Below are positions 24,801 through 39,675 of a stretch of 64,000 nt of DNA, piece after piece; position 1 is the stretch's first letter, and each line of letters starts with the position of its first letter. The notes beneath the pieces were generated by a model. That model did no database searches. It saw only the letters and a program-made list of their open reading frames with translations, and was not told the origin of the DNA. A program made the position numbers and the translations under genes. Location: positions 7,001,156 to 7,065,155 of the forward strand of contig NZ_CP027707.1 of NCBI RefSeq assembly GCF_003850345.1, in the 5' to 3' direction. This DNA comes from Pseudomonas chlororaphis subsp. piscium (GTDB taxonomy: Bacteria > Pseudomonadota > Gammaproteobacteria > Pseudomonadales > Pseudomonadaceae).

Positions 24801-25703
24801 CTACGACTGCAACGCCGGATGTTCGCGCAGCGCCTGCACCGCGAAGTCGACGAAACTGCGCACCCGCGCCGGGGCCTTGCGCCCGCCCTGATACACCACA
24901 TGGATCGGCAGCGGCGCCAGTTCGAACTCCGCCAAAACAATCTCCAGCTCGCCGGCCGCCACCTTGCCCGCGACCTGGTACGACAGCACCCGGGTCAGGC
25001 CCAGCCCCAGGCACGCGGCACTGATCGCCGCCTGGTTAGCGGTGACCACCAGCCGCGGTTCCGGGCGAACGCTCAAGGGGGTTCCGCCCTCGTCGAACAG
25101 CCAGCTTCTGGACTGGCCGATGGAAGACGGGGCAATCACCGGCGCCTGGCGCAATTCCTGCGGATGTCGCGGCCGCCCATGCCGGGCCAGGAAAGCCGGG
25201 GAAGCGCAGATGACCCGCCGCACCTCGCCGACACGCATCGCGTGCTGACCGCTGTCGGGCAACTCGCCGATGCGCACCGCGACGTCCATGCCCTCCTCGA
25301 CCATGCTCACCACCCGGTCGACCAGCAGGGCATTGATGCTGACCTCGGGAAAGCGTTCCAGGTAATCCACCATCAGCGGGGTCACGAACAACTCGCCAAA
25401 CAGCACCGGAGCAGTGATCGTCAATTGTCCGCGAGGGAGGGCATGGATGCCGGCGGCCGAGGCCTCGGCGTCCTGCAACTCGGCGAGGATGCGCCGGCTG
25501 TCTTCCAGGTAACGCTGGCCGGCTTCCGTCAGCAGCACATTGCGCGTGGTGCGGGTCAGCAACTGGGTGCCGATACGCTGCTCCAGCGCCGCCACCGCCC
25601 GGGTCACGCTGGGCGCGGACAGCCCCAGGCGCCGGGCCGCGGCAGCGAAGCCCTGCTCCTGGGCGACGCTGATGAACACCTGCATTTCCTGGAATCGGTC
25701 CAT
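24801..25703 (-). CDS. LysR family transcriptional regulator
   Basis: A 300-residue LTTR. The N-terminal helix-turn-helix (FISVAQEQGFAAAARRLGLS, then VTRAVAALEQRIGTQLL, residues ~9-48) and C-terminal effector domain are full length. The start at 25703 follows GAGGAC. It is closest in style to the DsdC/YhjC-type regulators that control a neighbouring GST or oxidoreductase. It lies upstream of and in the same direction as the GST/PPOX pair, and 58 bp downstream of the twelve-gene operon, so either could be its target. Confidence 0.9.
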   Translation of the reverse strand: MDRFQEMQVFISVAQEQGFAAAARRLGLSAPSVTRAVAALEQRIGTQLLTRTTRNVLLTEAGQRYLEDSRRILAELQDAEASAAGIHALPRGQLTITAPVLFGELFVTPLMVDYLERFPEVSINALLVDRVVSMVEEGMDVAVRIGELPDSGQHAMRVGEVRRVICASPAFLARHGRPRHPQELRQAPVIAPSSIGQSRSWLFDEGGTPLSVRPEPRLVVTANQAAISAACLGLGLTRVLSYQVAGKVAAGELEIVLAEFELAPLPIHVVYQGGRKAPARVRSFVDFAVQALREHPALQS

Positions 25704-25761: not shown

Positions 25762-26418
25762 TCAGGCAGGGACCTGGAGTCGCTGCCACAGGGCCTCATC
25801 GTTGAAGTCCCGGATGATACTCCGCGCACCCGCCTCGCGAAGCTGAGTTTCCTCGAGCCCCGACAGCATGCCGAAGGTGTGGATGCCCGCCGCTGCCGCG
25901 GAACGCACACCGGCCAGCGAGTCCTCGAAGGCCAGCGCCTGGTCGGCGCTCACCTCCAGCAGTTGCAGGGCCGTCAGGTAAGGCAGCGGGTCGGGCTTGC
26001 CGCGCGCCAGCTCACCGCCGATCACCAGCGCATCGAAGCGCTCGGCAATCCCCAGGCCCTGGAGCATGGCTTCGGCGTTTTCCCGGGGCGCGTTGGTCAC
26101 CACCGCCATGGGGATGCCGGCCGCCTGGGCATAATCCAGGGTGCGCAGCACGCCGGGCACCGGAGTGGTCTCGCGCAGCTGGGCGCGGAACATGGCCTCC
26201 TTCTGCGCCGCCAGCTCCGGGTACTGCGCCGCCGGCGCATGGGGAAACAGGCCGGAGAAAATCATGTCGTCGGGAAAGCCCATCACATGGGCCTTGTAGT
26301 AATCCAGGCTCATGGACTTGCCCCAGCGCGCCAGCAACTGATTGTAGGCGTTGAGGTGCAGGTCATCGGTGTCGATAAGGGTGCCGTCGAGATCGAACAA
26401 CAGGGCAGAAAGCTTCAA
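25762..26418 (-). CDS. HAD hydrolase, beta-phosphoglucomutase-like (last gene of the 12-gene operon)
   Basis: A 218-residue subclass IA HAD protein with intact motif I FDLDGTLIDTD (nucleophile Asp8, acid Asp10), motif II VVTNAP and motif III/IV KPDPLPYL and FEDSLAG. The family dephosphorylates or isomerises sugar phosphates. There is no ATG; TTG 26418 is chosen because GGAG lies 8 nt upstream and it overlaps the MFS stop as TTGA. In the operon it could remove phosphate from a sugar- or cyclitol-type intermediate; substrate unknown. Confidence 0.87.
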   Translation of the reverse strand: MKLSALLFDLDGTLIDTDDLHLNAYNQLLARWGKSMSLDYYKAHVMGFPDDMIFSGLFPHAPAAQYPELAAQKEAMFRAQLRETTPVPGVLRTLDYAQAAGIPMAVVTNAPRENAEAMLQGLGIAERFDALVIGGELARGKPDPLPYLTALQLLEVSADQALAFEDSLAGVRSAAAAGIHTFGMLSGLEETQLREAGARSIIRDFNDEALWQRLQVPA

Positions 26419-27617
26419 GGGCGTGCTCCAGGAAAATGCAGACCGCGCGCGATCGGCAGCATGAGAAAGGGATAAACAATCAACAGGCTGAATGCCGCTT
26501 CGACCCCGATCCGCGAGGACAGCAGGCCCAGCAGGAAAGGCGCCAGCAACAGCGCCACGCCCACCGCCTGCGAAGCCTGGGCGCTGATGGCCGAGCTGGC
26601 CTGGGGCGCGACGCGCATCGCCGAACCGAGGATCAGCGGGAAGAAATTGCCCAGGCAGGTGCCCAGGACAAAGATGAACAAGGCTGTCAGCAGCTGGACC
26701 TGGCTGAAGTACAGCACCACCAGGGTGGCGATGGCCCCGAGCATCACGCCGACCAGCAGCGGCAACGGGCTGATGCGGATCAACGCATAACGGCTGGCCA
26801 GGCGCCCGCACACCGTGCCGGCAAAATACAGGCTCATCAGCGTGGCCGCGGCCGAGGCGCTGACCTGGACGTGCACGGCCAGGTATTCCGCGCCCCAGAA
26901 GCCGACGCCCCATTCCGCGGAAATCCCCAGCAGCACCAAGGCCCACAAGCTCAGTTGCACCCGCCGGGTCATGAGGGTCTGCCCGCTCTCGCTGGCTTGA
27001 TGGGCGGCGGCGAGTATCACCGGGGCGTTCCAGGCACTCAGCGAGAGCAAGCTCACCAGCAGCGCGACGGCGGCGATGCTGCCCGGCACCAGGCGCCAGG
27101 ACAGCCCCAGGCCGGTCATGCTCCCTACCAGCAAGGCGCCGCCGAGCACGCACAGCCCGGCGACTATGTGCGCCTCCACCAGCCTCGGCGCGGCCTGCTC
27201 GCGATAACGCTCGCCCAGGGCCGCCTGCCCCACCGCCAGCACAAATCCGCCCGACAGGCCCATCGCCCCGGCGGCGAACAAGGTCAGCGACCAGTGTCCG
27301 GCAAGGGCGAACAGGCTGCTGGCGATAACCACCGAGAGGCAGGCGATGGTACTCATGCTCGTCGACCGCACCCGTCGTTCCAGCCAGCGATAGGGCCAGC
27401 CGACCAGCGCCAGGCCGGCGGCATAGGCGGCGAAATGCAGGCCGGCCCAACCGAGGTCGAGCGCCAGGGTTTCGCGCAGGAACGGCATGATCGGCCCGAG
27501 CAACCCTTGCTGGGCGCCGAACAACCCGAACAGCAGGTAAAGGAACCATGGGCGCGCTTCATGGACCTGCTCCTGGCGGCTGAGCGCCTGACTGGAATCC
27601 CGCGCGGCTTCAGCCAT
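26415..27617 (-). CDS. MFS transporter
   Basis: A 400-residue protein with about twelve hydrophobic helices, starting near QEQVHEARPWFLYLLFGLFG. The loop GWPYRWLERRVRSTS after helix 2 corresponds to the usual MFS loop 2-3. The C-terminal half repeats the pattern (AGTVCGRLASRYALI). As the only multi-helix transporter in the twelve-gene operon it is the candidate exporter (or importer) of the product. It overlaps the upstream solute-binding-like gene by 8 bp and the downstream HAD gene by 4 bp. Confidence 0.88.
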   Translation of the reverse strand: MAEAARDSSQALSRQEQVHEARPWFLYLLFGLFGAQQGLLGPIMPFLRETLALDLGWAGLHFAAYAAGLALVGWPYRWLERRVRSTSMSTIACLSVVIASSLFALAGHWSLTLFAAGAMGLSGGFVLAVGQAALGERYREQAAPRLVEAHIVAGLCVLGGALLVGSMTGLGLSWRLVPGSIAAVALLVSLLSLSAWNAPVILAAAHQASESGQTLMTRRVQLSLWALVLLGISAEWGVGFWGAEYLAVHVQVSASAAATLMSLYFAGTVCGRLASRYALIRISPLPLLVGVMLGAIATLVVLYFSQVQLLTALFIFVLGTCLGNFFPLILGSAMRVAPQASSAISAQASQAVGVALLLAPFLLGLLSSRIGVEAAFSLLIVYPFLMLPIARGLHFPGARP

Positions 27618-28515
27618 GAGCCGTCTCCCGGCTGAACAGCGCCTGCCATTGCCGGCAACGGGCGGCCTTGTCCCGACTGGCCTGCAAGGCCGGCAGCGGT
27701 TGCAGCGTTCCGGTCGGATGGGCCTGGCCCGGCACCACCTTGCCATAACGCTGGCTGATCGCCGCCGCGGCAGGCGTGAGCATCCACTGCAACGCCTGCT
27801 GCGCATAGGCGGCGTTGGGCGAACCGGCCCGGCAGGCGAACACCTCGTCCTCATAACAGCGCGCATCTTCGGGCACGCACCAGCGCAGCTGCGGGTGCTG
27901 TTCGGCGGCGCGGGTGGCCGCGGTCGACACCGTCACCCCCAGCCAGGCCTGCCCCTGCACGACCGCCTCGATCGGCGCCGTGGAGGAACCGCTGATCGAA
28001 GGGGCTTGCCTGGCCACCCGGGCCAACAGCGCCCAGGCCTGCTCGCCGTAATGTTCGAGCAGTGCGCCAAGGTGCAGGTAGCCGGCGCCGGAGCGCCCGG
28101 GGTCGGGCAAGGCCAGCCGCCCGGACCACTCGGGGCCTGTCAGGTCCTGCCAACGGGTCGGCACCGCCAGGCCTTCGCGGGCGAGGACTTTGGGGTCATA
28201 ACAGAAGGCCGGGACGAAACCCGACGCCGCGAACCAGCGGCGATCCGTGGCCACCGCGGCGTCCGGCAGGCCGGCGAATTCGATGTCCGTCAGCGGCATC
28301 AATTGCCAGGCCAGGCCGGGGTCGAGCAAGGCGGTTGCCGCCGTCCCCAGCAACAGGTCCCAGGCCCCGGCGCTGCCGCTGTGCAGGCGTTCGATCAGCT
28401 CCGAGGTGGAGCAACGGGTCAGGCGCACCGGCATGCCGATGTGCTGGCTGATACCGGCGATGAACTCGGCCAGCTCGGCATGCTCCATCGAACTGATGGC
28501 GTTGAGCTCAGTCAT
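27610..28515 (-). CDS. Periplasmic-binding-protein-fold protein without a signal peptide
   Basis: A 301-residue protein resembling type 2 extracellular solute-binding proteins (iron/2-aminoethylphosphonate class). Visible family features: ELAEFIAGISQHIGMPVRL, DLLLGTAATALLDPGL, an internal WSGRLALPDPGRSGAGYLHL and C-terminal YAQQALQWMLTPAAAAISQRYGK (split by short gaps here). The start at 28515 (MTELNAISS) begins at the first domain strand with no signal peptide or lipobox, and the upstream bases are coding for NudK, so it is likely cytosolic. It may be a ligand-binding helper of the MFS gene or an enzyme on this fold, as with THI5-type proteins. Function unknown. Confidence 0.78.
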   Translation of the reverse strand: MTELNAISSMEHAELAEFIAGISQHIGMPVRLTRCSTSELIERLHSGSAGAWDLLLGTAATALLDPGLAWQLMPLTDIEFAGLPDAAVATDRRWFAASGFVPAFCYDPKVLAREGLAVPTRWQDLTGPEWSGRLALPDPGRSGAGYLHLGALLEHYGEQAWALLARVARQAPSISGSSTAPIEAVVQGQAWLGVTVSTAATRAAEQHPQLRWCVPEDARCYEDEVFACRAGSPNAAYAQQALQWMLTPAAAAISQRYGKVVPGQAHPTGTLQPLPALQASRDKAARCRQWQALFSRETAHG

Positions 28516-29116
28516 CGGCAGCCTCCAGCAAGCGGTGCAGCTTGGCGTACTGCAGCAGCATGATGGTCTTGCCGTCGCAGATCTCGCCGCTGTCGATCAT
28601 TGCCAGGGCCCGGTCGATCGGCAGCTCCAGCACTTCGATCTCTTCGCCCTCGTGTTCCAGGCCGCCACCCTCGCCCTGCTTGTCTTCATCGAAATATTCG
28701 CCGACGAAAAAGTGCAGGCGCTCGGTGACCGAACCCGGGCTCATGAAGGCTTCGAACACCTTGCGCACCTCACGGATGCGATAGCCGGTTTCCTCCTCTG
28801 TCTCCTTGTGGATGCAGGTACGGGCATCGTCCTTGTCCAGCAGCCCGGCACAGGTTTCGATCAGCATGCCGTCGTGTTCGTTGACGAAGGCCGGGAAGCG
28901 AAACTGCCGGGTCAGCACCACCGTCTGCTTGGCCCTGCTGTACAGCAGGATGGTGGCGCCATTGCCACGGTCGTAGGTTTCCCGGTTCAGGGTGCGCCAG
29001 ACGCCATCGCGGCCCTGGAAGTCGTAGGTGGTCTTGCGCAGCACGTACCAGTTGTCCGAGAGCACTTCGACCTGATGGATCCGCACACGGTCCTTGGTGA
29101 GGATGGCCTGGTTCAT
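28508..29116 (-). CDS. NudK-like NUDIX hydrolase (GDP-sugar pyrophosphatase type)
   Basis: A 202-residue NUDIX protein that reads like E. coli NudK (GDP-mannose hydrolase) over its length: ILSDN-type start VLSDNWYVLRKTTYDF, RETYDRGNGATILLYS, QLIE-type IETCAGLLD, and MSPGSVTERLHFF. The Nudix box is at about residues 91-112 with KETEEETGY; its first acidic position is Asp rather than Glu. The start MNQAILTKD was chosen over an upstream ATG inside the preceding gene. It probably cleaves a nucleoside-diphosphate sugar to NMP and sugar-1-phosphate. Whether it serves the operon or is general housekeeping is unclear. Confidence 0.85.
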   Translation of the reverse strand: MNQAILTKDRVRIHQVEVLSDNWYVLRKTTYDFQGRDGVWRTLNRETYDRGNGATILLYSRAKQTVVLTRQFRFPAFVNEHDGMLIETCAGLLDKDDARTCIHKETEEETGYRIREVRKVFEAFMSPGSVTERLHFFVGEYFDEDKQGEGGGLEHEGEEIEVLELPIDRALAMIDSGEICDGKTIMLLQYAKLHRLLEAADD

Positions 29117-29120
29117 CGAC

Positions 29121-30032
29121 TCATTCCTTGTTCGCTGACAGATGAGTGGCATTGGGCGCAACGCTCAACAGGCGCTCGACCATGCGTGGGTCCCGGTGCT
29201 CGGGAGCGGTCATCACCGCGGTGTCCAGGGCGCGGTCGCAACCGCAGGGGCAGGCGCCGGCATGCCGGCCCAGGCGCGTCACGGCTTCGGTCACCAGGCG
29301 CCGGGTCAGGTTGAAGGTGTCCGCCATGCGTTGCGCCACCAGCGTGGCGTTCACCGGCTCGTGGGATTCGTGCCAGCAGTCGAAATCGGTCGGAATGGCG
29401 ATCATCGCGTAGCACAGCTCGGCCTCGCGGGCCAGCTTGGCTTCGGGCATCGCGGTCATGCCGATCACCGTGCCGCCCCACTGGCGGTACAGGTGGGACT
29501 CGGCGCGGGTCGAGAACTGCGGGCCTTCCATGACCACGTAGGTGCCGCCGTTGCGCGCCTGGATATCGGTGGCCTCGGCACTCTCGGCGAGCACGCCACG
29601 CATGCGCGCGCAAACCGGCTCGCCGAAAGGCACATGGCCGACCAGCCCGGGGCCGAAAAAGGTTTTTTCACGCTGGATGGTGCGGTCGATGTACTGGTCG
29701 ATCAGCACAAAGCTGCCTGGAGGCGCGTCGTGGGTCAGGCTGCCCACCGCGCTGACCGACAGCAGTTGCGTGCAACCGACACTGCGCAGCGCGGCGATGT
29801 TGGCGCGGGCATTGATCGAGGCCGGCGGAATCACGTGCCCCACGCCATGCCGTTGGACAAAGGCCACGGGCACGCCATTGAGCGTGCCCAGGGTGAGCGG
29901 CGAGGACGGCGTGCCGAAGGCGGTCGTGCACTCCACCTGTTGAATGTCCTGCAGGCCTGGCAGCTGTTGCAGGCCGCTGCCGCCGATGATGCCGATACGT
30001 TGAACGTGCTGGGTTGGAGTGGAATGGGTCAC
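29121..30032 (-). CDS. mtnP: S-methyl-5'-thioadenosine phosphorylase
   Basis: A 303-residue MTAP/PNP-family enzyme that splits methylthioadenosine (or a related 5'-modified nucleoside) with phosphate to adenine and a ribose-1-phosphate. Phosphate and nucleoside motifs: GGSG (17-20), RHG (61-63), SAVGSL, IDQYIDRTIQREKTFF, MEGPQFSTRAES (168-179), TDFDCW. A Cys cluster CPCGC is at 261-265, reminiscent of CXC motifs in some archaeal MTAPs. It starts with GTG 30032 overlapping the desaturase stop. Pseudomonads normally use a shorter methylthioinosine phosphorylase elsewhere, so this is probably a dedicated extra enzyme. Confidence 0.88.
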   Translation of the reverse strand: MTHSTPTQHVQRIGIIGGSGLQQLPGLQDIQQVECTTAFGTPSSPLTLGTLNGVPVAFVQRHGVGHVIPPASINARANIAALRSVGCTQLLSVSAVGSLTHDAPPGSFVLIDQYIDRTIQREKTFFGPGLVGHVPFGEPVCARMRGVLAESAEATDIQARNGGTYVVMEGPQFSTRAESHLYRQWGGTVIGMTAMPEAKLAREAELCYAMIAIPTDFDCWHESHEPVNATLVAQRMADTFNLTRRLVTEAVTRLGRHAGACPCGCDRALDTAVMTAPEHRDPRMVERLLSVAPNATHLSANKE

Positions 30033-31141
30033 AGGCTACCTCTCGACTTCAGGGGGGACGGTTCGTGTTCGGTGCACACCAGGCGTTCATAGAGTTCGGA
30101 CAGGGCCGTGGGCGCATTGCCGCGGGGCAACAGCAACCCTTCGCTGGCGTTGGTGCTGTAGCGCGGTTCGTGGATTTTCAGGTGCCGGTCGATCGCCGGC
30201 AGGTAGTTCCAGCGCACGCCGGGGTACAGGGAATGTGCCAGGTGATAGGCGTCGGACGTCGGGGCGATGAACACCCGTACCAGCCAGCCGGAAATCCCGA
30301 AGTAATCGGTGGGCCGGCCCGCCAGGTATTCCAGCTCGCGGCGATTGCGCGCGGTGCCTTCGATGAACCAGCGGTGCTCGGTCAGCAGCGAGATCCAGGC
30401 AAACACCGGATAGGACGTCAGCAGCGGCAGCAACCAGCCGAACAACACGCCTTTCCAGCCGCCGAAGGCGTACAGCAACGCCGCCACCGCCGCCACACTC
30501 AGGCACCGCACCAGGGTGGTCAGGCGGGAGTGGTTGAGCAGGCTGCTGCGCACCAGGGTGGTGAGATTCACCCAGGCCCCGCGAGGGGTCAGCGGGTACA
30601 GCAACAGGCCATAGAAACCGCTGGGCGACAGGCCGGCAACGTAGCCGCCGGCATGTACCCGGGCGCGGTTGGGGTCGAGTTGCGGATGGTTGGGGTGGCG
30701 ATGGTGCTCCAGGGTATGGGTCTGGTGCCGGCTGCGCATGTCGCGCTTGAACATCGGGAACTGGTAGAACAGGTTACTCAGCCACCACTGCCAGCCATGG
30801 TGGCGACACAGGGCGAAGTGCACCGCGTTGTGCCCGAATTCCTGCAACGCGCGCATGCGCCCGCCGCTCCACAGCAGCACGGCCAGCCAGGCCAGCGGCG
30901 ACGAGTAGATCGATGCCGCCTGCACCGCGGCGACTATATCCAGCCACGTCCAGACAAAGGGCAGCGGCGCGAACCAGGTATCCAGCGGGCGGTAGTACTG
31001 CTCCCGCCGCCCCTCCAGGCGCGGTATCAGCTTGAGCAGGCGCAGCACCCGCTGCGCATCCCGGTAATAGAACGCCACCAGCGCGCGCAACAGCAGCGAA
31101 ACAGCGATCAGGCCAAGCAGGACAATGTGCGCAGTGTCCAT
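30029..31141 (-). CDS. Fatty acid desaturase-like His-box membrane protein
   Basis: A 370-residue integral membrane protein with hydrophobic segments near residues 5-23, 60-92 and 200-260. It has desaturase/hydroxylase-type histidine boxes: HNAVH (104-108), then H142 and HHRH (146-149) with H152, and later EHRWF and AYHLAHSLYPG. This pattern fits a non-haem diiron oxygenase/desaturase of the membrane FA_desaturase superfamily. It has no acyl carrier or reductase partner nearby. In this operon it might hydroxylate or desaturate a lipidic part of the product, or an amine-bearing small molecule. It starts 2 bp after the HAD stop. Confidence 0.82.
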   Translation of the reverse strand: MDTAHIVLLGLIAVSLLLRALVAFYYRDAQRVLRLLKLIPRLEGRREQYYRPLDTWFAPLPFVWTWLDIVAAVQAASIYSSPLAWLAVLLWSGGRMRALQEFGHNAVHFALCRHHGWQWWLSNLFYQFPMFKRDMRSRHQTHTLEHHRHPNHPQLDPNRARVHAGGYVAGLSPSGFYGLLLYPLTPRGAWVNLTTLVRSSLLNHSRLTTLVRCLSVAAVAALLYAFGGWKGVLFGWLLPLLTSYPVFAWISLLTEHRWFIEGTARNRRELEYLAGRPTDYFGISGWLVRVFIAPTSDAYHLAHSLYPGVRWNYLPAIDRHLKIHEPRYSTNASEGLLLPRGNAPTALSELYERLVCTEHEPSPLKSRGSL

Positions 31142-31143
31142 GA

Positions 31144-31842
31144 TCAGGCCCCCTCGCGAACGACGGCGCGCCGCTCGGTGCTGGCGTAATGGCCCAGCAA
31201 TTCGCCCAAGCCGCGGAAGACCGGGGCGTCGGCCTGCCGCAGGCGGTCGATGTCCTGATGGCCGGTGCTGACCAGCAGCGGCTTCCAGCCGACGGCCCGC
31301 GCCACATCGTAGTCGTGCAGGGTGTCGCCGATGAACAGGGTGCGCCCGGCCGGTGTGCCGAGCTTCTCCTGGAGCATCAGGGCCTCGGCGGTCTTGCTGG
31401 TGGCCTGGTTGTGGCTCAGCCCCACGACATGCTCGAAATGCCCGCGCAGGCCCTTGGCCTCCAGGGTCTGGAGCAGCACGTCGCAATGCGAGGCGGACAC
31501 AATGGAGACGCCGATGCCGGCATTGCGCGCCGCCTCCAGCACCTCGAACACCCCATCGTGCAGCGGACACTGCGCGACATTCGTATCGAAGTGCTCCAGG
31601 TAATGTTCGACGATTTGCGCGAAGGGCGTGCGCTGCAGATCGAACCCCAGGGAGGCGTAGAAATCGGCAATCGGAAAGTCGAACAGCGCACGGTAGCGAA
31701 CGGCATCGATGGGCGGCACCGCGTAACGCTCGCCACAGCGATTGACCGCGCTGACCGCCAGGGCGATATCGTCGATCAGGGTGCCGTTCCAGTCGAATAC
31801 CAGGTGTTCGATCCCCGAGAAGTGCAGTCGATCATCGATCAT
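31144..31842 (-). CDS. HAD superfamily protein, phosphoglycolate-phosphatase-like, variant motif I
   Basis: A 232-residue HAD protein. Motif I is FDWNGTLIDD with nucleophile Asp17, but Asn19 at the +2 position where phosphatases have the general-acid Asp. Motif II is VSASH, the conserved Lys is in SKTAEAL, and motif IV is FIGDTLHDYDVA. The cap region matches the PGP-like subgroup. The Asn may mean altered chemistry (phosphotransfer, weak phosphatase) or a family variant. The start at 31842 overlaps the FAD gene stop by 4 bp. Confidence 0.85.
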   Translation of the reverse strand: MIDDRLHFSGIEHLVFDWNGTLIDDIALAVSAVNRCGERYAVPPIDAVRYRALFDFPIADFYASLGFDLQRTPFAQIVEHYLEHFDTNVAQCPLHDGVFEVLEAARNAGIGVSIVSASHCDVLLQTLEAKGLRGHFEHVVGLSHNQATSKTAEALMLQEKLGTPAGRTLFIGDTLHDYDVARAVGWKPLLVSTGHQDIDRLRQADAPVFRGLGELLGHYASTERRAVVREGA

Positions 31843-33209
31843 GGTCGGGTTTTCTCCGCAAGAAGGGCGTTGAGGGCGATACGCGAGGCGATCGCCGGTG
31901 TGTATAGCTTGCTGGGCTCCATCACCAGGTTGGTCACGCCAATCTGGGTTTCCAGGGCCCGCCGATTGTTCGCCGAGACCTGGCCCAGGCCGGCGCCGTA
32001 CCAATGATGGAAACGGGTGCGCCAACTGCGCTGGCCAACGGTTTCGGGAAAGCGGAAGTCTTCGGTGGTGGCCATGCTCCAGGCGCCATCGACCACCCCG
32101 CACAGGCGGCCCTGCAACTGGCGAAAGCCCTGGCCGCCCTGCAGTACTTCGTCGATGTGGCGGTCGATGCAATCGGCCTCCAGCGCGCCGATGGTCATGC
32201 CCTGGCTGTACAGCGGGTTCATGCTGCTCAGGGCGTCGCCGACCACCAGCAGCCCGGCGGGCCAGTGCTCGACCCGGTCGAAGTGGGTGCGGCGGCTGCC
32301 GGGCATCTTGAAGGTGTGGACCGGCGACAGCGGCTCGGCGTCGCGGATCACCTCATGGATGTCCGGCACCGGAAGCGCCGCCAGCGCCTGCAGGAACTCC
32401 TGCGGATCGTTACCGGGAAAATGGCCGAACCAGCCGCCAGTGGTGACCATCCAGCGGTCGCCTTCGATCGGGCTGATCACCCCCATGGAACGCTGCAACG
32501 GCGCCTTGGGCAGCACCAGCAGGACCTGCCACTGTTCGGCATAGGCCGGAAGGCGCCGGTAGATGCGCGACGCATAACCCAGCTCGGTCTTGACCACGCT
32601 GGTCTCGACCTCGCCGAAGCCGGCCTCTTTCAGCCACGTCGGCAAGCGCGTGCCACGCCCGCTGGCGTCGACCAGCAGGTCGCAGCGCAGCGTCCGCTCG
32701 CCGTGCCCATCGTCGACGGTCACCGCCTCGACCCGCCGGGAAGGATCGGCCCCGGTGAACTCGATCTGCGTGACCCGGGTGCTGGACAGCACCTCGACGT
32801 TCAGCACGCCGAGCAAAGCCCGGCGCAGCTGGTTGTCGATCAGCCGCCGGCTGCAGTAATGGGCGTAGATGCCACTGCGGTAGCGGTTTTTCCAACGCCC
32901 GCCCTGGTACCACTTCACGTCATGACCCAGGTCGGCCACTTGCGCGCCTCCCTGCTCCAGGGCGCTCAGGGTGCCGGGGAAGATGCCTTCGATGATCTGC
33001 TTGCCGCGCAGCAGCAACAGGTGGACGTGATGCTCCTGGGGCAGGCTCTGGCGCGGGCCGGTTTCGTCGAAGAAATCGCTCTTCTCGATCACCGTGACCC
33101 GCTGGAAACGCCGGGCCAGGACCGCGGCCGTCAGGCAGCCCGTCACGCTGCCGCCGATGACCACGGCATGTCGACCGCCCACGGCGGTATCAGGCTGGGG
33201 AGTAGTCAT
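31839..33209 (-). CDS. FAD-dependent oxidoreductase / monooxygenase
   Basis: A 456-residue class A flavoprotein. The N-terminal dinucleotide fold is VVIGGSVTG (16-24) with IEKSD for the FAD ribose; a DG-like motif DASGRGTRLP is at 181-190; the second FAD motif GDALSSMNPLYSQG is at 324-337. This is the layout of aromatic hydroxylases, halogenases and geranylgeranyl-reductase-like enzymes; I see no WxWxIP halogenase motif. The start at 33209 follows AAAGGTG and overlaps the aminotransferase gene by 20 bp; an ATG at 33224 is an alternative. It probably oxidises an intermediate of the operon's pathway. Confidence 0.87.
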   Translation of the reverse strand: MTTPQPDTAVGGRHAVVIGGSVTGCLTAAVLARRFQRVTVIEKSDFFDETGPRQSLPQEHHVHLLLLRGKQIIEGIFPGTLSALEQGGAQVADLGHDVKWYQGGRWKNRYRSGIYAHYCSRRLIDNQLRRALLGVLNVEVLSSTRVTQIEFTGADPSRRVEAVTVDDGHGERTLRCDLLVDASGRGTRLPTWLKEAGFGEVETSVVKTELGYASRIYRRLPAYAEQWQVLLVLPKAPLQRSMGVISPIEGDRWMVTTGGWFGHFPGNDPQEFLQALAALPVPDIHEVIRDAEPLSPVHTFKMPGSRRTHFDRVEHWPAGLLVVGDALSSMNPLYSQGMTIGALEADCIDRHIDEVLQGGQGFRQLQGRLCGVVDGAWSMATTEDFRFPETVGQRSWRTRFHHWYGAGLGQVSANNRRALETQIGVTNLVMEPSKLYTPAIASRIALNALLAEKTRP

Positions 33210-34296
33210 TGAGCACCTTTGCAATGTATGCCAGGTCGTCGTCCGCCAGGCCCGGGTGCAGCGGCACCGTGGTCAGCGAACGTAGCAACCGGGCGGCGTT
33301 GGGGCAATCGCGGCGGTACTGCGCCAGCAGCGGCAACTGGTACAGCGGCTGGTTGTCGTACTTGCCGATGTCCGATGGGATGCCATGACGCTGCTGGTAA
33401 TGCACCAGTTCACGCCCATCGTGCCCCACTGCCTGCAACAGCAAGGCATAGGCGTTGGCCTCTCCACCGGGGGTCAGCGGCAGTTCGCGGATCGCCGGGT
33501 TGTCCAGTTGCTCCAGCAGCTGCCGGCGGTTGTCCTGGCGCTGGTGCAGACGGCTTTCCAGCTGCCGCGAACGCGCCAGCCCGAGGGCGGCCTGCAGGCC
33601 ACCGAGCTTGAGGTTGATGCCCAGGGTTTCGCCGGTGAGATTGCCGAAGCGGGTGTAGGCCCGGATACGGCTGGCGCGCTCGTCGTCATCGGTCATGACA
33701 AAACCGCCCTCACCGGTGGACATGAACTTGCAGTCGTGGGTGCTGAAGCAGCTGATGTCGCCATGCTGCGCCAGCCAGCTGCCGTTCAGGCGCGTCAGGT
33801 GCGCGTGGGCCAGGTCCTGGATCAGCGGGATGCCGGCCTGGCGCGTGGTGGCCCAGGTGGTGTGCGAGGCGATCGGATACCCCCACATCGGCACCTCGAT
33901 CACCGCGCAGGTCCGCGGGCCGATGCAGCGTTGCAGGTCTTCCGGGTCGAGCCCGAAGCTGTCCGGCGCCACATCGCAGAACACCGGGACCAGGCCCAGG
34001 GACAGGATCGGCAGGACGGTGCAGATCGGGCACGTGGGCGCGACTATCACTTCGTCCCCCGGCTGGAAGCGCACGCCGGCCAGTGCCGCGGTGACCGAAG
34101 CGGCCCCCGACGACACGGCGATCACGTGGCGCACGCCGTACAGCACAGCGAGCGCGGTCTCGTAGTCCTCGACGATCTGCGAGGTGCCAGTCAGCCCTGT
34201 CGCCAGGGCGCGTTGCAGCTCGGGCACATCGTCGGGGGTATCGTGGCCGCACTTGTCCGCGATGACCCGGGTGGGTCGGGAGATGGCCTGGTTCAT
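33190..34296 (-). CDS. DegT/DnrJ/EryC1/StrS family aminotransferase (second copy)
   Basis: A 368-residue fold-type I PLP enzyme of the sugar/cyclitol aminotransferase family. Key features: SSGAASVTAAL (phosphate-binding loop), D161 in QDLAHAH for the pyridine nitrogen, Schiff-base Lys190 in FSTHDCKFMSTGEGG, and RFGN/INLKLG in the C-terminal half. Between the loop and the Asp it has the unusual APTCPICTVLP. It is a paralogue of 34805-35914, with the NUDIX gene between them, and overlaps it by ATGA. Such enzymes transfer an amino group from Glu or Gln to a keto-sugar, keto-cyclitol or similar ketone. Confidence 0.9.
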   Translation of the reverse strand: MNQAISRPTRVIADKCGHDTPDDVPELQRALATGLTGTSQIVEDYETALAVLYGVRHVIAVSSGAASVTAALAGVRFQPGDEVIVAPTCPICTVLPILSLGLVPVFCDVAPDSFGLDPEDLQRCIGPRTCAVIEVPMWGYPIASHTTWATTRQAGIPLIQDLAHAHLTRLNGSWLAQHGDISCFSTHDCKFMSTGEGGFVMTDDDERASRIRAYTRFGNLTGETLGINLKLGGLQAALGLARSRQLESRLHQRQDNRRQLLEQLDNPAIRELPLTPGGEANAYALLLQAVGHDGRELVHYQQRHGIPSDIGKYDNQPLYQLPLLAQYRRDCPNAARLLRSLTTVPLHPGLADDDLAYIAKVLNDYSPA

Positions 34297-34808
34297 GGCG
34301 CCACCTTCCTGCCGACCATGTCCCACACCTCGGCATCGGCGAATACCCGGTCCACCATGCGCCGGAAGTTGGGGAACATCTTCAGCTCGGCAGTTTCCTG
34401 CCGGCTGAAGAAGCGCGCGTTTTCCACCTCGCGCTCCGGCGGGCAAGCCCGCAGGTCGGTGGCGGTGAGGTAGATCAGGTCCAGGTGGTAATGCGGCCCG
34501 CGCTTGTCATCGATGAACTCGCAGAGGATCCGGTAAGGCTGGTGCAACACCGTGACATCGGTCTCGGCATCGGCCAGTTCCAGGTCACGCTCGCCCAGCA
34601 GGGCGGCGTGAATCCCGGTTTCCTCGTAGATCTCGCGCAGCACCGCCACATCAGGGGTTTCCCCCTGTTCTATATGGCCGCCCGGGTACAGCCAGACCCC
34701 CAGCTTGCGATGGTGCAGCAGGAGCATCTTGCGGTCCGGATTCAACACGAACGCCGAGGCCGTGAAATGCCGGTCCAGGGTCGAACGATCGGGGACGTCC
34801 GTCATCAT
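34293..34808 (-). CDS. NUDIX hydrolase
   Basis: A 171-residue protein with a perfect Nudix box at residues 44-66 (GX5E from GHIEQGE, then REIYEETGI). The N-terminal strand FVLNPDRKMLLLHHRKLGVW fits MutT-like NTP or nucleotide-derivative hydrolases (split as FVLNPDRKMLLL and HHRKLGVW). It sits between the two aminotransferase genes with ATGA-type overlaps on both sides, so it is part of the same pathway. By analogy with Pur7 of puromycin synthesis, it could remove pyrophosphate from a nucleotide intermediate; that is a guess. Confidence 0.88.
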   Translation of the reverse strand: MMTDVPDRSTLDRHFTASAFVLNPDRKMLLLHHRKLGVWLYPGGHIEQGETPDVAVLREIYEETGIHAALLGERDLELADAETDVTVLHQPYRILCEFIDDKRGPHYHLDLIYLTATDLRACPPEREVENARFFSRQETAELKMFPNFRRMVDRVFADAEVWDMVGRKVAP

Positions 34809-35914
34809 GGCGCACCGTACTGGTTGATCCGCTCGGCCATGTAGTCCAGTTCGGCGTGGGTGATGTCCGGATGGACCGGGATGGTGGTCATGCTGGCCAG
34901 CAGCGCCTCGGCGTTCGGGCAGTCGTTGCGGTACTGGGCCAGCGCCGGGAACTCGTAGAGCGCCTTGCAGCCGTAGCGCTTGATATCCGACGGGATGCCC
35001 GCCTCGTCCAGGTAATCGATGAAGGCCCGGTTGTCGGCGAAATGCAGTTCCAGGTTGAGGAAGTAGTAGTTGGTCCGCCCGCCCTCGATGATGACCTTTT
35101 CCCGCACCTTGCTATGGTCGAGTTGCTGCAGGAAGTAGGTGGCATTGGCGCGTCGTTGCTCGATCTGCGCGGCCAGCGAGTCCAGGCGGTTGGCGCCCAG
35201 GGCGGCAGGCAGCGCGGCCAGCTTGTAGTTGAGGCCGAAGTCCTTGCCGTTGAGGTTGCCGAAGCGGCTGTAGTCACGGCAACGCTGGGCCAGTTGGTCG
35301 TCGTCGGTGAGGATGAAACCGCCCTCACCGGTGGCCAGCGGCTTGCGTTCGTGGGTGCTGAAGCACGACAGGTCGCCATAGGCCGACAGCGGCCGACCAT
35401 TGAGGGTGCTGCCATGGGAATGCGCCAGGTCGAGGATCAGCTTGATCCCCAGTTCACGGGTCAGGCCTTGCAGCTCATCGACTTCGGTGGGGTAGCCCCA
35501 CATCGGAATATCGATGATCGCCCGGGTACGCGGGGTGATGCGGGCCTTGATCGACTCCGGGTCGGCGCCGAAACCGTGACGGCGGGTGTCGACGAAGATC
35601 GGGTTGGCGCCAGCGGCGATGATCGGATAGATGGTGCACAGCGGGCAGCTCGGCGTCAGCAGGACGTCGTCGCCGGGACCGACGCCGGCGGCGTAGATCG
35701 CCACGCTCAGGGCCGCGCCCCCCGAAGAGACCGCGATCGCATGCCGCGCCTCGAACCAGGCCGCCAGCTTGGCCTCGTATTCGCCCACCACATCGCTGGT
35801 ACCGGACAGTGGCCGTTCCAGGGTGTTCTGCAGGGTCAGCAGATCGTCGGCGTACATCGGACGGTACTTGTCGGAAACGGAGATGCGCGCGGCGCTGGAG
35901 AGATTAGAGGACAT
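34805..35914 (-). CDS. DegT/DnrJ/EryC1/StrS family aminotransferase (first copy)
   Basis: A 369-residue PLP enzyme of the sugar aminotransferase family. Key features: SSGGAALSVAIY loop, D162 in LDLAHSHGS, Schiff-base Lys191 in FSTHERKPLATGEGG, RFGNLNGKDFGLNYKL. It shares the uncommon Cys-containing TPSCPLCTIYP with its paralogue. I chose the ATG at 35914 (MSSNLSSAAR); a longer frame upstream overlaps the dehydrogenase gene and is proline-rich shadow. It overlaps the dehydrogenase gene by 11 bp. Together they suggest oxidation of a hydroxyl to a ketone followed by transamination. Confidence 0.9.
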   Translation of the reverse strand: MSSNLSSAARISVSDKYRPMYADDLLTLQNTLERPLSGTSDVVGEYEAKLAAWFEARHAIAVSSGGAALSVAIYAAGVGPGDDVLLTPSCPLCTIYPIIAAGANPIFVDTRRHGFGADPESIKARITPRTRAIIDIPMWGYPTEVDELQGLTRELGIKLILDLAHSHGSTLNGRPLSAYGDLSCFSTHERKPLATGEGGFILTDDDQLAQRCRDYSRFGNLNGKDFGLNYKLAALPAALGANRLDSLAAQIEQRRANATYFLQQLDHSKVREKVIIEGGRTNYYFLNLELHFADNRAFIDYLDEAGIPSDIKRYGCKALYEFPALAQYRNDCPNAEALLASMTTIPVHPDITHAELDYMAERINQYGAP

Positions 35915-36983
35915 TGGTCTGGGCTCCGAGAAAGGCTGGGGACTTGGCGGCATGGGTGGAGTGGAGGGCAAGCACGGGGGCGACATCGGCGCGGGCGCTG
36001 TCGGCATGACAGATCTGCTCAATCACCCGGAAGGTCGGCAGCAGGCTCTCGAAGCTGGCCTCGTAAGGCGAACGGTTGCGCACCGCGTCGAAGAACTTCT
36101 CCAGTTCGCCGAAATAACCGCTGCGCTCATAACCCGAATCCAACGGCCCCGGCTGCCACGCGCCGCGCCAGCGCTTGGCGGTGCCGGTTGCCCCGGTGCC
36201 ATGTACCGGCTCGTGCAGGGTGATGTTCCACAGGTTGTTGAGCTCGACCATCATCGAATTGGAGCTGACGATCTTCATGTCGAATTCGAAGTACGGGAAC
36301 ATCGTTCCGCTCAGCAGGCTGACCGTCGCGCCGGAGCTGAAGCCGAGTTCCAGGCTCACCAGCAACGAGTCCTCGTGGCGTTGCACCCGGGATTCGATAT
36401 CCCGCAATTCGCCACCGCCGAAGGTCACGCCAAGGTCGATGGTGTGAATCGCCTGGGCCAGCAGAAACGAACGCAGGGTGGAGTCCAGCCCCCACAGCGG
36501 TGCGGTGGGTTTGCTCGCATAGTGGTTGAGCTGGATGTGCACGACCTTGCCGAACTGCTCGGTGCGCGTCATATCGCGCAGCTGGCGCATGGGCTTGGCA
36601 TATTTGAAGTTCATGCCCACGCCAGTGACCACCTGGGCCTGGCGAGCCGCGCCGATCAGGTATTCGAGCTCGGCGAGGGTGAAGCACGGCGGCTTCTCGA
36701 CGAAAACATGCACGCCCTTGGCCATTGCCTTGATTGCCAGGTCGCGGTGCGCCTGGGGCGGGCACGCCATGACCACCGCATCCAGCGCAGCGGTATCGAG
36801 CATCTCGTCGAAGTCGTCGGTGATCGCGACCTCGGAAATGAAACGGTGGATTTGTCCGGCGCGGGTCAGGTCGCTGTCGCACACGGCGACGATGCGAATA
36901 TCCGGCATTTGCAGAAGCGTGGGCAGCAGGTTTTCTTGCATCTGCGCGCCAAGGCCGACGATGCCAACTCTGAGTACAGTCAT
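35904..36983 (-). CDS. Gfo/Idh/MocA family NAD(P)-dependent oxidoreductase (first gene of the 12-gene operon)
   Basis: A 359-residue dehydrogenase. The Rossmann motif is VGIVGLGAQ (6-14), the catalytic EKP is at 96-98 (VFVEKPPC), and a His in AQAIHTIDLG fits the family's substrate-binding His. The family oxidises hydroxyls of sugars, inositols and nucleotide sugars. Three in-frame ATGs lie at 36995, 36989 and 36983; 36983 is chosen because GGAG ends 6 nt upstream. As the promoter-proximal gene followed by two aminotransferases it probably generates the ketone they use, like NtdC before NtdA in kanosamine synthesis, or Pur10 before Pur4; this is inference. Confidence 0.88.
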   Translation of the reverse strand: MTVLRVGIVGLGAQMQENLLPTLLQMPDIRIVAVCDSDLTRAGQIHRFISEVAITDDFDEMLDTAALDAVVMACPPQAHRDLAIKAMAKGVHVFVEKPPCFTLAELEYLIGAARQAQVVTGVGMNFKYAKPMRQLRDMTRTEQFGKVVHIQLNHYASKPTAPLWGLDSTLRSFLLAQAIHTIDLGVTFGGGELRDIESRVQRHEDSLLVSLELGFSSGATVSLLSGTMFPYFEFDMKIVSSNSMMVELNNLWNITLHEPVHGTGATGTAKRWRGAWQPGPLDSGYERSGYFGELEKFFDAVRNRSPYEASFESLLPTFRVIEQICHADSARADVAPVLALHSTHAAKSPAFLGAQTNVL

Positions 36984-37118
36984 AACCATCTCCATCCTGG
37001 AAAAGTGGGTACTGCGTCATGAAAAGGTTGGACGAACGCCTACACGGAACCCGCGTCGGGTCACCTGTGGGGTGAACCGATCGGGTCCGGCATTCGCTTG
37101 GATCGAGGCAGGATCGCC

Positions 37119-37403
37119 TCAGAACAACGGATTGCCCTTACGGGACCCGTTCGGGCTATTGCCCAGGGTCATCCGAGTAGAACACCCGGATGTTTCACGC
37201 CACACGCCGACACGGGGTTGATGACCAGCAGTCACCAAGGCGCAGCGAGCAGAATGGATATGACCGCGCAGGCGGTAGGTATGAGGGGCGGCAGGTCGAA
37301 TCGGCTGCCAGTCACTGTGAGCGACCTGGCCGAGGGCCTTGATCAATGAATCGGGGTTTCGTTGGAAAACCGAATAGCGCCCGAAATGACGATACGCATG
37401 CAT
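37119..37403 (-). CDS. Possible small ORF upstream of the 12-gene operon
   Basis: A 94-codon frame read toward the operon. Its ATG at 37403 has a good ribosome-binding site (AAGGATGA, about 7 nt upstream). The product is basic, starts MHAYRHFGRYSVFQRNPDSL and matches no family I know. A 135-bp gap separates it from the dehydrogenase start. It could be a real small protein, a precursor-like peptide or a leader, or chance. The antisense frames look no better. I rate it as uncertain. Confidence 0.3.
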   Translation of the reverse strand: MHAYRHFGRYSVFQRNPDSLIKALGQVAHSDWQPIRPAAPHTYRLRGHIHSARCALVTAGHQPRVGVWRETSGCSTRMTLGNSPNGSRKGNPLF

Positions 37404-37475
37404 GGCTGAATCATCCTTGAAGCAATAAATCTATCCCTTGTTATGCAGAAGCTCATGTTCCGTGAGCCCTTGCTT

Positions 37476-37500
37476 GCCACACACCTCATCAATGTGTGGC
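37476..37500. promoter_or_regulatory. Inverted repeat upstream of the 12-gene operon
   Basis: Perfect 8-bp arms GCCACACA (37476-37483) and TGTGTGGC (37493-37500) with a 9-base spacer. It has no T-run suited to a terminator in either direction and lies in an AT-rich zone, so it may be an operator or mRNA hairpin. Function inferred from position only. Confidence 0.4.
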
Positions 37501-37918
37501 TTGGATGTATAGATCAGGCTTTTTCGGAGCGCAAATCAGTTGCTATATCGTTTCATCATATTGTTTTGAGCAATCCGGACATAAGGCAACGGGCCATATA
37601 GGTCCGTTGTCACCATCGTCGAACCGCCGGAAAAAATTGAAACCGGATAATCAAATCCGTCTCACCAGAGGCACGGGCTTCGAGCTGAGAGGTCTGGATA
37701 CACTTGGCTTGCGTAGTCCCCTGACATGCGGCCGGATGCGCACGGGCGATGAAATTTGATTGTTGTTGAGGATTATTGATTCGGATTATCCAGCCACTCC
37801 GGGCAGCATCCACCACGCATTGAGCGACAGGCGAGCATCCGCTTCGCGTAGCTCGGGTCGGTGCCGGGGGCCAGGTCGGAACCTGAATGACAACGTTCAT
37901 CACTTGGGAACAGAACAC

Positions 37919-38599
37919 ATGTGCATGTCGAACAAATGGATCGTGGGAATTGCCTTGAGCTGCATATTCCAGGTCGGGTGTGTCTCGAAGGTGGCGCAGC
38001 AAGAGCAATATTCGGGCTTCCTGGCCAATTATCAGGGGCTGGAGGAACACACCACGCCAAGTGAACAGAAGGTGCTGCGCTGGGTGGCGCCAGGGTTCGA
38101 TCCTCACGCCTATTCCACTGTCGTGTTCAAGCAGGTAGAGCTGTATCCAGCGCCGAAACCGACCGAGCGCGTCAACCTGCAAACCCTGAAAGACCTGCAG
38201 ATCATCGCCAGCAACAGCGTCAGGAACGCATTCGCTCCCACCTACAGGATCGTTTCGAATGCGCAGCAGGCACCGGCCCATTCGCGGACATTGATCTTGC
38301 GGGCGGCTATCACCGGCGTCAGCGCCAGCAACGAAGGCATGCATTGGTATGAGGTCGTCCCCATCGCCGCCATTGTCGGGGCAACACAGGCAGCCACCGG
38401 CCATCGCGATCAGACGGCCGAGTTGTATCTCGAAGCCGACCTGATCGATGCCAAAACCGGTTTGCCGGTCGCCAAGATGGTGCGCAAGGTGTTCGGCGAG
38501 ACCTTGAAAAACGCCAGCCAGCCGATAGTCGCCAATGACTTCAAGGTCGCCTTCAAAAGCATGACCAACGACATGCAGACACTGCTTTCCAGGCAGTGA
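37919..38599 (+). CDS. DUF3313-type outer-membrane lipoprotein
   Basis: A 226-residue protein, start ATG 37919 (TGGGAA upstream; ATG 37925 also possible). A hydrophobic signal WIVGIALSCIFQVG ends at a Cys (GCVSKV), a slightly atypical lipobox. The mature part has YSGFLANYQGLEE, VLRWVAPGFDPHAYSTVVFK and a glycine/alanine-rich loop typical of DUF3313 proteins. It is probably anchored to the membrane; function unknown. It may be paired with the secreted protein gene 131 bp downstream. Confidence 0.8.
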   Translation: MCMSNKWIVGIALSCIFQVGCVSKVAQQEQYSGFLANYQGLEEHTTPSEQKVLRWVAPGFDPHAYSTVVFKQVELYPAPKPTERVNLQTLKDLQIIASNSVRNAFAPTYRIVSNAQQAPAHSRTLILRAAITGVSASNEGMHWYEVVPIAAIVGATQAATGHRDQTAELYLEADLIDAKTGLPVAKMVRKVFGETLKNASQPIVANDFKVAFKSMTNDMQTLLSRQ

Positions 38600-38730
38600 C
38601 AACTGCGGGATACCCAGCGCAAACCTTGCATTGCCTCGAAAGGCCTAGGGTTTCAGAACGACAGTCACGCTGCGTCTGCCAAAAACAGGCCGCCAGGCCA
38701 GGCAGCGACGTCCAACGAGAGTCCGACTTG

Positions 38731-39192
38731 ATGAAAATACTGAGTTTTACCTTATCGGCCGTTGTATTGCTCGCCAGCTCCGGAGCGTTGGCGGCAACGG
38801 TGGTTCCCCTGAAAGGCCAGACTTCCCAGACGATCCAGCAAGACACCAGTGCCTGCCAGTCGCAGGCCAATGCTCAGTTCCCGATACAAAACACCGTGCC
38901 CTACGGTGGCCGGATAAAAGGCGCGACTACCGCCGCCATCGCCGGGGCCACCGCTGCGGAAGTTCGGGGCCGGCAACATGAAAACGTCTATGACCATATC
39001 GACGACGATATCAAGCAAGACTATCGCCAGAACCATGCCCGCAGCGCCGCGACGGCCGGCGCAATGATCGGCGCATCAAGACAGCGCCAGGAACGCAGGC
39101 AGGACCTTAAAAGCACCGAGCAAAACATCACCGCCAACAACTCCGTGTACAGCAGTTGCCTGCAACAGCGTGGCTACAACGTTCAGCCTTGA
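38731..39192 (+). CDS. Secreted protein with glycine-zipper-like segments
   Basis: A 153-residue protein with a clear signal peptide (MKILSFTLSAVVLLASSGALA, cut after ALA). Two Gly/Ala-rich helices, GATTAAIAGATAAEV and AATAGAMIGASRQR, are separated by a charged stretch, like glycine-zipper or YMGG envelope proteins. Cys residues at both ends (TSACQSQ and YSSCLQQ) could form a disulfide. It follows a DUF3313 lipoprotein, a common neighbour pattern for envelope stress proteins; role unknown. Confidence 0.75.
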   Translation: MKILSFTLSAVVLLASSGALAATVVPLKGQTSQTIQQDTSACQSQANAQFPIQNTVPYGGRIKGATTAAIAGATAAEVRGRQHENVYDHIDDDIKQDYRQNHARSAATAGAMIGASRQRQERRQDLKSTEQNITANNSVYSSCLQQRGYNVQP

Positions 39193-39675
39193 TCCAGCCG
39201 TTCCTTTACAAGGCACAGGCATTCTTGATGCAGATTGTGAAATCGATCCAACGGGCTGCACTGGAATGCCTGCAAGTTCATCCTTCCCCCTGAAGTAATG
39301 CCACTCTTCCCTTCTCCCTCCAGCCTCCCTCTGCATTCAAATCTTCGCTTCAATACAGGGCGCGGATATCGCCAGGTCGCAAGCTTGTGCTTGAACAACG
39401 AGCCGTCCGATACTCTGCCCTGCAGTTTTCGGATGGCGCAGATGACTCGTACTGAGCATCATCATGACCTCCGATTAAACCCCGTGGATTACCCTTGCCT
39501 GATTCCAGTGAGACTTTTGATGGGTTGCTCCAGCATTGTCCAGTGACGCTCTCTGCACCTTGCGTGCTTGCTCACGCATAGCCGTTCATCTCCCCGACAA
39601 GCCTGTATTGCCTCAGATCCAGCCCATCAAAGCCGTCCCTATACTCAGCCAGAACCACCTGAACGGAGGATTCGC
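39193..39675. other. Intergenic region upstream of the ToxR-like gene
   Basis: 483 bp without a supportable gene. The codon-like stretches I looked at lack ribosome-binding sites and recognisable products. It must contain the promoter for the regulator gene at 39676; GGAGGA at 39665-39670 is that gene's ribosome-binding site. From here to 42.8 kb the sequence is noticeably AT-richer than the rest of the window. Confidence 0.5.

What the first reader, a model, noticed from the sequence alone, without database searches (positions are those of the whole stretch)
25762..36983. Twelve-gene translationally coupled operon that looks like an undescribed small-molecule pathway
Seen directly: twelve minus-strand genes in 11.2 kb, with neighbouring start and stop codons overlapping by 4-20 bp (ATGA, GTGA, TTGA) or separated by only 2-4 bp. 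Enzyme set: Gfo/Idh/MocA dehydrogenase, two DegT aminotransferases, NUDIX, FAD oxidoreductase, two HAD proteins, diiron desaturase-like protein, MTAP, NudK-like NUDIX, solute-binding-fold protein, MFS. Known parallels: dehydrogenase + StrS aminotransferase + HAD phosphatase make kanosamine (NtdC/NtdA/NtdB); dehydrogenase + aminotransferase + Nudix + phosphatase act in puromycin aminonucleoside synthesis (Pur10/4/7/3). Inference: an amino sugar, aminocyclitol or aminonucleoside is made, tailored by the FAD and desaturase-like enzymes and exported by the MFS protein. I know of no described cluster with this full set, and there is no PKS/NRPS core to flag it in routine searches.
Basis: partly seen in the sequence, partly recalled or inferred. 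Interest (0 to 1): 0.88.

Follow-up and report, generated by a model that had tools for sequence, protein, structure and literature searches.

The report
Mobile operon for unknown amino sugar
A compact set of twelve bacterial genes, found in nearly the same order in bacteria of two phyla, probably makes and exports a small sugar-like compound carrying amino groups whose identity has not been established.

Summary
Twelve minus-strand genes (36983-25762) overlap by 4-20 bp or sit 2-4 bp apart. Host: Pseudomonas chlororaphis or very near it. The unit is real: 18 of 23 loci of a genome scan carry g1-g9 in exactly this order, one more in changed order, four keep only the desaturase. The genes diverge together and have crossed phyla. 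The core is g1-g10; exporter and second HAD are exchangeable.

It is not wholly undescribed: PMC2885751 listed it in P. cichorii (ORFs C1-C12) and Chromobacterium violaceum, and PMC11019928 reports CV_1395-CV_1407 as quorum-sensing activated. I found no product in print.

New clues: a canonical adenine-nucleoside phosphorylase (MTAP); aldose 1-epimerases coupled to the operon in four relatives; GalE in Pantoea; a MonCI-like flavin enzyme; a GntB/RtxC-like diiron enzyme; a signal-less solute-binding-protein fold nearest to sugar-phosphate and PLP binders. Best reading: an aminated, probably diamino, reducing sugar built on an adenine nucleotide, cut from adenine by the phosphorylase, tailored and exported. 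This is inferred, not shown. New variant of a known kind (puromycin/ADG-type aminonucleoside logic).

The parts
35904..36983 (-). g1 Gfo/Idh/MocA dehydrogenase
   Evidence: PF01408 81.8 bits; PDB 3m2t 532 bits, next match 55
34805..35914 (-). g2 DegT aminotransferase 1
   Evidence: PF01041 234.6 bits; lysine motif kept
34293..34808 (-). g3 NUDIX hydrolase
   Evidence: PF00293 62.8 bits; complete Nudix box in 20 of 22 rows
33190..34296 (-). g4 DegT aminotransferase 2
   Evidence: PF01041 204.9 bits; 46% identical to g2; separate clade
31839..33209 (-). g5 flavin monooxygenase-like, MonCI/Lsd18-type
   Evidence: MonCI 223 bits, Lsd18/LasC 171-173 bits
31144..31842 (-). g6 HAD protein with DWNG in motif I
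   Evidence: PF13419 66 bits; DWNG in 22 of 22 rows
30029..31141 (-). g7 desaturase-type diiron enzyme, GntB/RtxC-like
   Evidence: PF00487 70.8 bits; NF041365 98 bits, below cut-off 380; eight His invariant in 23 sequences
29121..30032 (-). g8 MTAP-family nucleoside phosphorylase
   Evidence: TIGR01694 290.3 bits, cut-off 274.85; adenine-side Asp pair in 14 of 14 cluster proteins
28508..29116 (-). g9 NudK-type NUDIX hydrolase
   Evidence: NF011585 236 bits, cut-off 234
27610..28515 (-). g10 solute-binding-protein fold without signal peptide
26415..27617 (-). g11 MFS transporter
   Evidence: PF07690 58.8 bits
25762..26418 (-). g12 HAD phosphatase, beta-phosphoglucomutase/sugar phosphatase type
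   Evidence: PF13419 117.7 bits; TIGR02009 122.4 bits, below cut-off 153.35
24801..25703 (-). LysR-type regulator just downstream, possible regulator of the operon
   Evidence: PF03466 and PF00126 on a slightly longer frame; start and 58-bp gap; also in L037, L038, L054

Best explanation
A self-contained, horizontally spread biosynthetic operon for an exported small reducing amino sugar, probably with two amino groups. Most likely route (inferred): an adenine nucleotide serves as scaffold. The Gfo dehydrogenase (g1) oxidises a sugar hydroxyl; a DegT enzyme (g2 or g4) aminates the ketone; NUDIX g3 and a HAD protein (g6 or g12) strip phosphates; the MTAP-family phosphorylase (g8) cuts off adenine to give an amino-sugar 1-phosphate. 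A second oxidation (diiron g7 and/or flavin g5) and the second DegT add further function. The cytosolic binding-protein-like g10 holds a phosphorylated intermediate or product (carrier, enzyme or immunity), g12 removes the last phosphate or detoxifies re-phosphorylated product, g11 exports it. Shown: gene set, order, conservation, family membership, motifs. Inferred: every reaction, the order of steps and the product. g9 has no sure place in this route.
For: Core g1-g9 in the same order in 18 of 23 loci; g1-g10 distances correlate 0.75-0.97 with g7. MTAP above its family cut-off, adenine-side Asp pair kept in 14 of 14 cluster proteins aligned (residue roles recalled); the own genome's only other match at E <= 1e-20 is a 39% relative. 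Aldose 1-epimerase coupled to the operon in L047, L048, L050 and, of another type, L071; such enzymes act on reducing sugars (family knowledge). GalE in the Pantoea operon. Two DegT clades kept apart, lysine motif in all 42 rows printed. Precedent in a Gram-negative: adgB-E (homologues of pur10, pur4, pur7, pur3), with an MFS gene adgA beside them, make 3'-amino-3'-deoxyguanosine (PMC9239236, passages). The four best structural matches of g10 bind sugar phosphates or PLP.
Against: No substrate, product or mutant is known. MTAP's usual substrate MTA is not excluded. Three of the five AfuA residues tested by mutation (T150, H205, D206) are not kept in g10; iron and citrate binders follow close behind and an iron binder is first in Foldseek, so its ligand class is weakly supported. 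Aldose epimerases of the two types were found in 5 of 34 sequences searched and not in the window; GalM and GalE are named for hexoses, not pentoses. MonCI-type flavin and desaturase-type diiron enzymes would be unusual on sugars. g6 lacks the second motif-I Asp of ordinary HAD phosphatases. g9 is unexplained. Homology of g1/g2/g3 to Pur10/Pur4/Pur7 proper was not tested.
Confidence: 0.42

Rival explanations
1. An intact aminonucleoside antimetabolite, like 3'-amino-3'-deoxyguanosine or puromycin aminonucleoside; MTAP recycles shunt nucleosides or protects the producer.
For: Dehydrogenase + aminotransferase + Nudix + phosphatase + MFS is the gene logic of adgA-E; the first four are shared with pur/cst.
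Against: Aldose epimerases coupled to the operon in four loci point to a free reducing sugar; MTAP sits inside the fixed core in the 19 cluster loci; two oxygenase-type enzymes and a second DegT are unexplained.
Confidence: 0.2
2. A hexose route as for kanosamine (NtdC/NtdA/NtdB-like): dehydrogenase and DegT act on a hexose phosphate or nucleotide sugar, NudK and HAD release the sugar, MTAP is a helper.
For: DegT matches are mostly nucleotide-sugar and cyclitol aminotransferases and include NtdA at 97 and 79 bits; NudK family; GalE in L034, GalM type in L047 and L048 and L050; g10 near G6P/F6P binders.
Against: No nucleotidyltransferase or kinase in the operon; leaves the core MTAP without a job; DegT and all Gfo matches but 3m2t are distant.
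Confidence: 0.2
3. A non-proteinogenic amino acid of the rhizobitoxine/guanitoxin sort: the diiron enzyme desaturates or hydroxylates an amino acid and MTAP clears methylthioadenosine.
For: g7 is GntB-like by profile and its nearest database cluster is named dihydrorhizobitoxine desaturase; a distant g7 relative sits beside a class I/II aminotransferase (L076).
Against: No family in the operon is a SAM-using enzyme that would make methylthioadenosine; sugar-type DegT, Gfo, two NUDIX and two HAD unexplained; GntB cut-off missed (98 against 380 bits).
Confidence: 0.1
4. A salvage or catabolic operon for an environmental sugar or nucleoside, with the MFS protein as importer and the binding protein as sensor.
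For: Solute-binding fold, MFS, NUDIX and MTAP all occur in salvage; LysR next to the window's operon and DeoR near that of L071.
Against: Two DegT aminotransferases with a flavin and a diiron enzyme look anabolic; in C. violaceum the cluster is activated by quorum sensing together with antibiotic clusters; patchy spread.
Confidence: 0.06

Closest known systems
Photorhabdus adgA-E operon (3'-amino-3'-deoxyguanosine; PMC9239236, passages read)
   Same: Pur-type dehydrogenase, aminotransferase, Nudix and phosphatase plus an MFS gene; compact; Gram-negative; no assembly line
   Different: Here a second DegT, MTAP, second NUDIX, diiron and flavin enzymes and a binding-protein fold; sequence kinship to AdgB-E not tested
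Nucleoside parts of the puromycin, cystocin and A201A clusters (pur10, pur4, pur7, pur3; PMC11641026, passages read)
   Same: The same four kinds of reaction, starting from ATP
   Different: No peptidyl ligase or methyltransferase here; adenine probably discarded (inferred)
P. cichorii region C (ORFs C1-C12) and C. violaceum CV_1407-CV_1396 (PMC2885751 and PMC11019928, passages read)
   Same: The same cluster by gene order and annotation
   Different: Other species; no product or function assigned there
AfuA / VcA0625 / P5PA periplasmic binding proteins
   Different: No signal-like N-terminus, no ABC partner gene, T150/H205/D206 not kept
GntB (guanitoxin) and RtxC (rhizobitoxine)
   Same: Desaturase-type diiron family
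   Different: 98 bits against a cut-off of 380; different gene company; RtxC itself not compared (the name comes from a database record)

Membership tests
Pur/ADG aminonucleoside operons | Dehydrogenase, DegT-type aminotransferase, Nudix and phosphatase in one operon | tested here: met
   At family level only; g6 is a doubtful phosphatase, g12 an ordinary one by motif
Pur/ADG aminonucleoside operons | Enzymes orthologous to Pur10/Pur4/Pur7/Pur3 or AdgB-E | not tested
   No Pur or Adg sequence was at hand; none of the 120 rows shown (of 175) bears such a name
Pur/ADG aminonucleoside operons | Product keeps the nucleobase | not testable with these tools
   Needs chemistry
S-methyl-5'-thioadenosine phosphorylase (MTAP) | Family score above cut-off and catalytic residues kept | tested here: met
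   TIGR01694 290.3 against 274.85; motifs (residue roles recalled)
S-methyl-5'-thioadenosine phosphorylase (MTAP) | Acts on MTA | not testable with these tools
   Needs an assay
GntB L-arginine gamma-hydroxylase | NF041365 equivalog cut-off | tested here: not met
   98 against 380 bits
Desaturase-type diiron enzymes | Histidine clusters | tested here: met
   H104, H108, H142, H146, H147, H256, H300, H303 invariant in 23 sequences
NudK | NF011585 cut-off | tested here: met
   236 against 234 bits, only just
MonCI/Lsd18 flavin epoxidases | Sequence similarity over most of the protein | tested here: met
   223 bits over residues 12-387 of 456
MonCI/Lsd18 flavin epoxidases | Epoxidation of an alkene | not testable with these tools
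   Needs an assay
AfuA-type sugar-phosphate uptake proteins | Sugar-binding motif H205, D206, E229 | tested here: not met
   Aligned residues are T198, A199, E222 (a numbering offset of 2 was fitted by me to the five residues named)
AfuA-type sugar-phosphate uptake proteins | Signal peptide and ABC partner genes | tested here: not met
   No signal-like N-terminus in 20 loci by eye; 28515 is the most upstream in-frame start in the window; no ABC genes in the operon
Kanosamine NtdABC | NtdA-like DegT, NtdC-like Gfo, NtdB-like phosphatase | tested here: inconclusive
   NtdA matched at 97 and 79 bits among many DegT chains; NtdB and NtdC not compared
A characterised MIBiG cluster | At least eight matching genes | not tested
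   MIBiG was not available; the ten paper searches found no product

The most novel reading that the evidence does not exclude
Adenosine as a disposable scaffold: the pathway builds a diamino sugar (pentose) on an adenine nucleotide, discards adenine by phosphorolysis, and hands the phosphorylated sugar to a binding protein that has lost its signal peptide and become a cytosolic carrier, enzyme or immunity protein of a biosynthetic pathway. That would be a new class of natural product and a new role for the solute-binding fold, under quorum control in at least one producer.
Probability: 0.25. Interest if true: 0.82.

Novelty: new variant of a known kind. Interest (0 to 1): 0.6.

Why it matters
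A conserved, mobile biosynthetic operon without a known product, in a biocontrol Pseudomonas species, plant-associated pseudomonads, Chromobacterium, Burkholderia relatives and myxobacteria, is a strong lead for a new antimetabolite. It has no assembly-line gene among its twelve, so routine mining would probably miss it (inference). It also offers a test case for a binding-protein fold working inside a pathway, and for a membrane diiron enzyme and a MonCI-like flavin enzyme in sugar or nucleoside chemistry.

Tried and rejected
Regulation: no lux-like or long palindrome upstream of g1 in the window with my simple scan; weak or unrelated palindromes in L041, L045, L049 and L050. The sigma-70 scan found 0 promoter-like sites (1.6 expected), and terminator-like sites were at chance level (8 found, 6.8 in shuffles). 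No tRNA and no Rfam family in the window. Paper searches on the gene set found nothing; searches on names and locus tags led to PMC2885751 and PMC11019928. A search of Enterobacterales with the LSJC7 Gfo protein, meant to reach an ADG-like operon, found only its own genome, 1 of 295; the LSJC7 desaturase likewise, 1 of 295. A search of 194 genomes of the window's order with g5 found, besides itself, one 31% relative that I did not follow. My Nudix-box pattern fitted g9 in none of 22 rows, so only the family score supports g9. The 5' side of the MTAP pocket was compared from recall of the human enzyme and was not decisive. glmS lies about 6 kb upstream in the window and close by in L038 and L054, which suggests the Tn7 hotspot (recalled), but I looked for no transposon gene.

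Considered and rejected: an uptake operon (no ABC genes, no signal-like N-terminus); a chance run of ORFs (order conserved in two phyla).

Full report
OBSERVATION. The twelve genes are there, all on the minus strand, with neighbouring ends overlapping by 4-20 bp or 2-4 bp apart. The window is the last 64 kb of a single 7.07-Mb contig. The closest g7 record is 98% identical, stands for 160 member sequences and is named P. chlororaphis, so the host is that species or very near it. A LysR gene starts 58 bp beyond g12.

THE UNIT IS REAL AND MOVES. A scan of the species-genome collection with the desaturase alignment gave 23 loci. In 18 of them (L037-L054) g1-g9 stand in exactly the window's order, in Pseudomonas, Paraburkholderia, Mycetohabitans, Chromobacterium, Archangium and Dyella. 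One (L055, an enterobacterium) has the families in a changed order. Four (L056-L059) have only the desaturase, apart from a 45-residue NUDIX-like match on the other strand of L059.

Mean identity over g1-g10 is 65% between Chitinivorax, a betaproteobacterium, and the two myxobacterial loci, but at most 58% to the other eleven rows; gene distances correlate 0.75-0.97 with g7. So the unit has probably crossed phyla as a whole. It is rare: a close g7 (over 80% identity) in 2 of 298 Pseudomonas genomes, the window's own included; a match at E <= 1e-60 in 2 of 300 genomes of the order of L045, its own included, and in 7 of 193 of the phylum of L051, its own included. Of those seven I examined six: two carry the cluster and four lack the other core genes. 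In the window and in L038/L054 it lies downstream of glmS; in P. cichorii it lies in the hrp region (PMC2885751).

CORE AND ACCESSORY. g1-g10 are the steady part, though g10 stands after g11 and g12 in L047, L048 and L050. The exporter is replaced by an MFS_3-type protein in L071 and L072, and by an MFS protein not matched by g11 in L052. HAD2 was not matched in L051, L071 or L072. A GalM-type aldose 1-epimerase is coupled in L047, L048 and L050 (66% and 81% identical to that of L048) and one of a different type in L071; a 52% relative of the latter lies near the cluster in L051. The other 29 of the 34 sequences searched, the window included, gave no match to either. GalE ends the Pantoea operon. 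These recurrent sugar epimerases are the best independent sign that a reducing sugar is involved.

MECHANISM. See Best explanation. The Gram-negative precedent is the Photorhabdus adg operon, shown by heterologous expression to make 3'-amino-3'-deoxyguanosine (PMC9239236, passages); the reactions of Pur10, Pur7, Pur4 and Pur3 are as summarised in PMC11641026 (passages). Phosphorolysis of an aminated nucleoside to an aminopentose 1-phosphate also has a precedent in the caprazamycin-type aminoribose pathway (recalled, not looked up).

KNOWN BEFORE. PMC2885751 (passages) lists ORFs C1-C12 of P. cichorii as homologous to CV_1407-CV_1396 and suggests later acquisition. PMC11019928 (one passage) lists CV_1395-CV_1407 among gene clusters activated by CviI/CviR that may make new metabolites. 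The ten paper searches turned up no product; the library holds openly licensed papers only, so a product may be in print elsewhere.

VERDICT. A genuine orphan biosynthetic operon, new variant of a known kind, product unknown; amino-sugar chemistry likely, the adenine-scaffold route plausible.

Noticed in passing
window 31144-31842 and 21 relatives: HAD1 has DWNG in motif I (second Asp replaced by Asn) in 22 of 22 rows, unusual for a phosphatase.
   Followed up: partly
L076 4656-10367 (the same neighbourhood as L057): A distant g7 relative sits near a class I/II aminotransferase and an AurF-type N-oxygenase: a different small gene cluster in Corallococcus.
   Followed up: partly
L058 9956-20537 (Legionellaceae MAG): A 38% g7 relative is followed by a 3161-aa ORF whose start looks by eye like an assembly-line enzyme; not scanned.
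   Followed up: no
L059 9159-12963 (Halomonas): A 30% g7 relative beside what look by eye like an aminotransferase and a LysE-type exporter; not scanned.
   Followed up: no
L073 8279-10481 and L074 8684-10875: Myxobacterial g7 relatives (about 38%) next to a gene that looks by eye like an alanine-racemase-fold protein; not scanned.
   Followed up: no
window 37000-43000: Stretch of 46-59% GC (operon 62-70%) between glmS and the operon, with a DUF3313 gene and a Trans_reg_C protein; looks insertion-prone.
   Followed up: partly
upstream of g1, ten Pseudomonas sequences aligned: A stretch shortly before the start is conserved across the ten, possibly a shared promoter or operator.
   Followed up: no
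PDB 3m2t: An unassigned 'probable dehydrogenase' structure matches g1 at 532 bits and is probably an enzyme of this pathway.
   Followed up: partly
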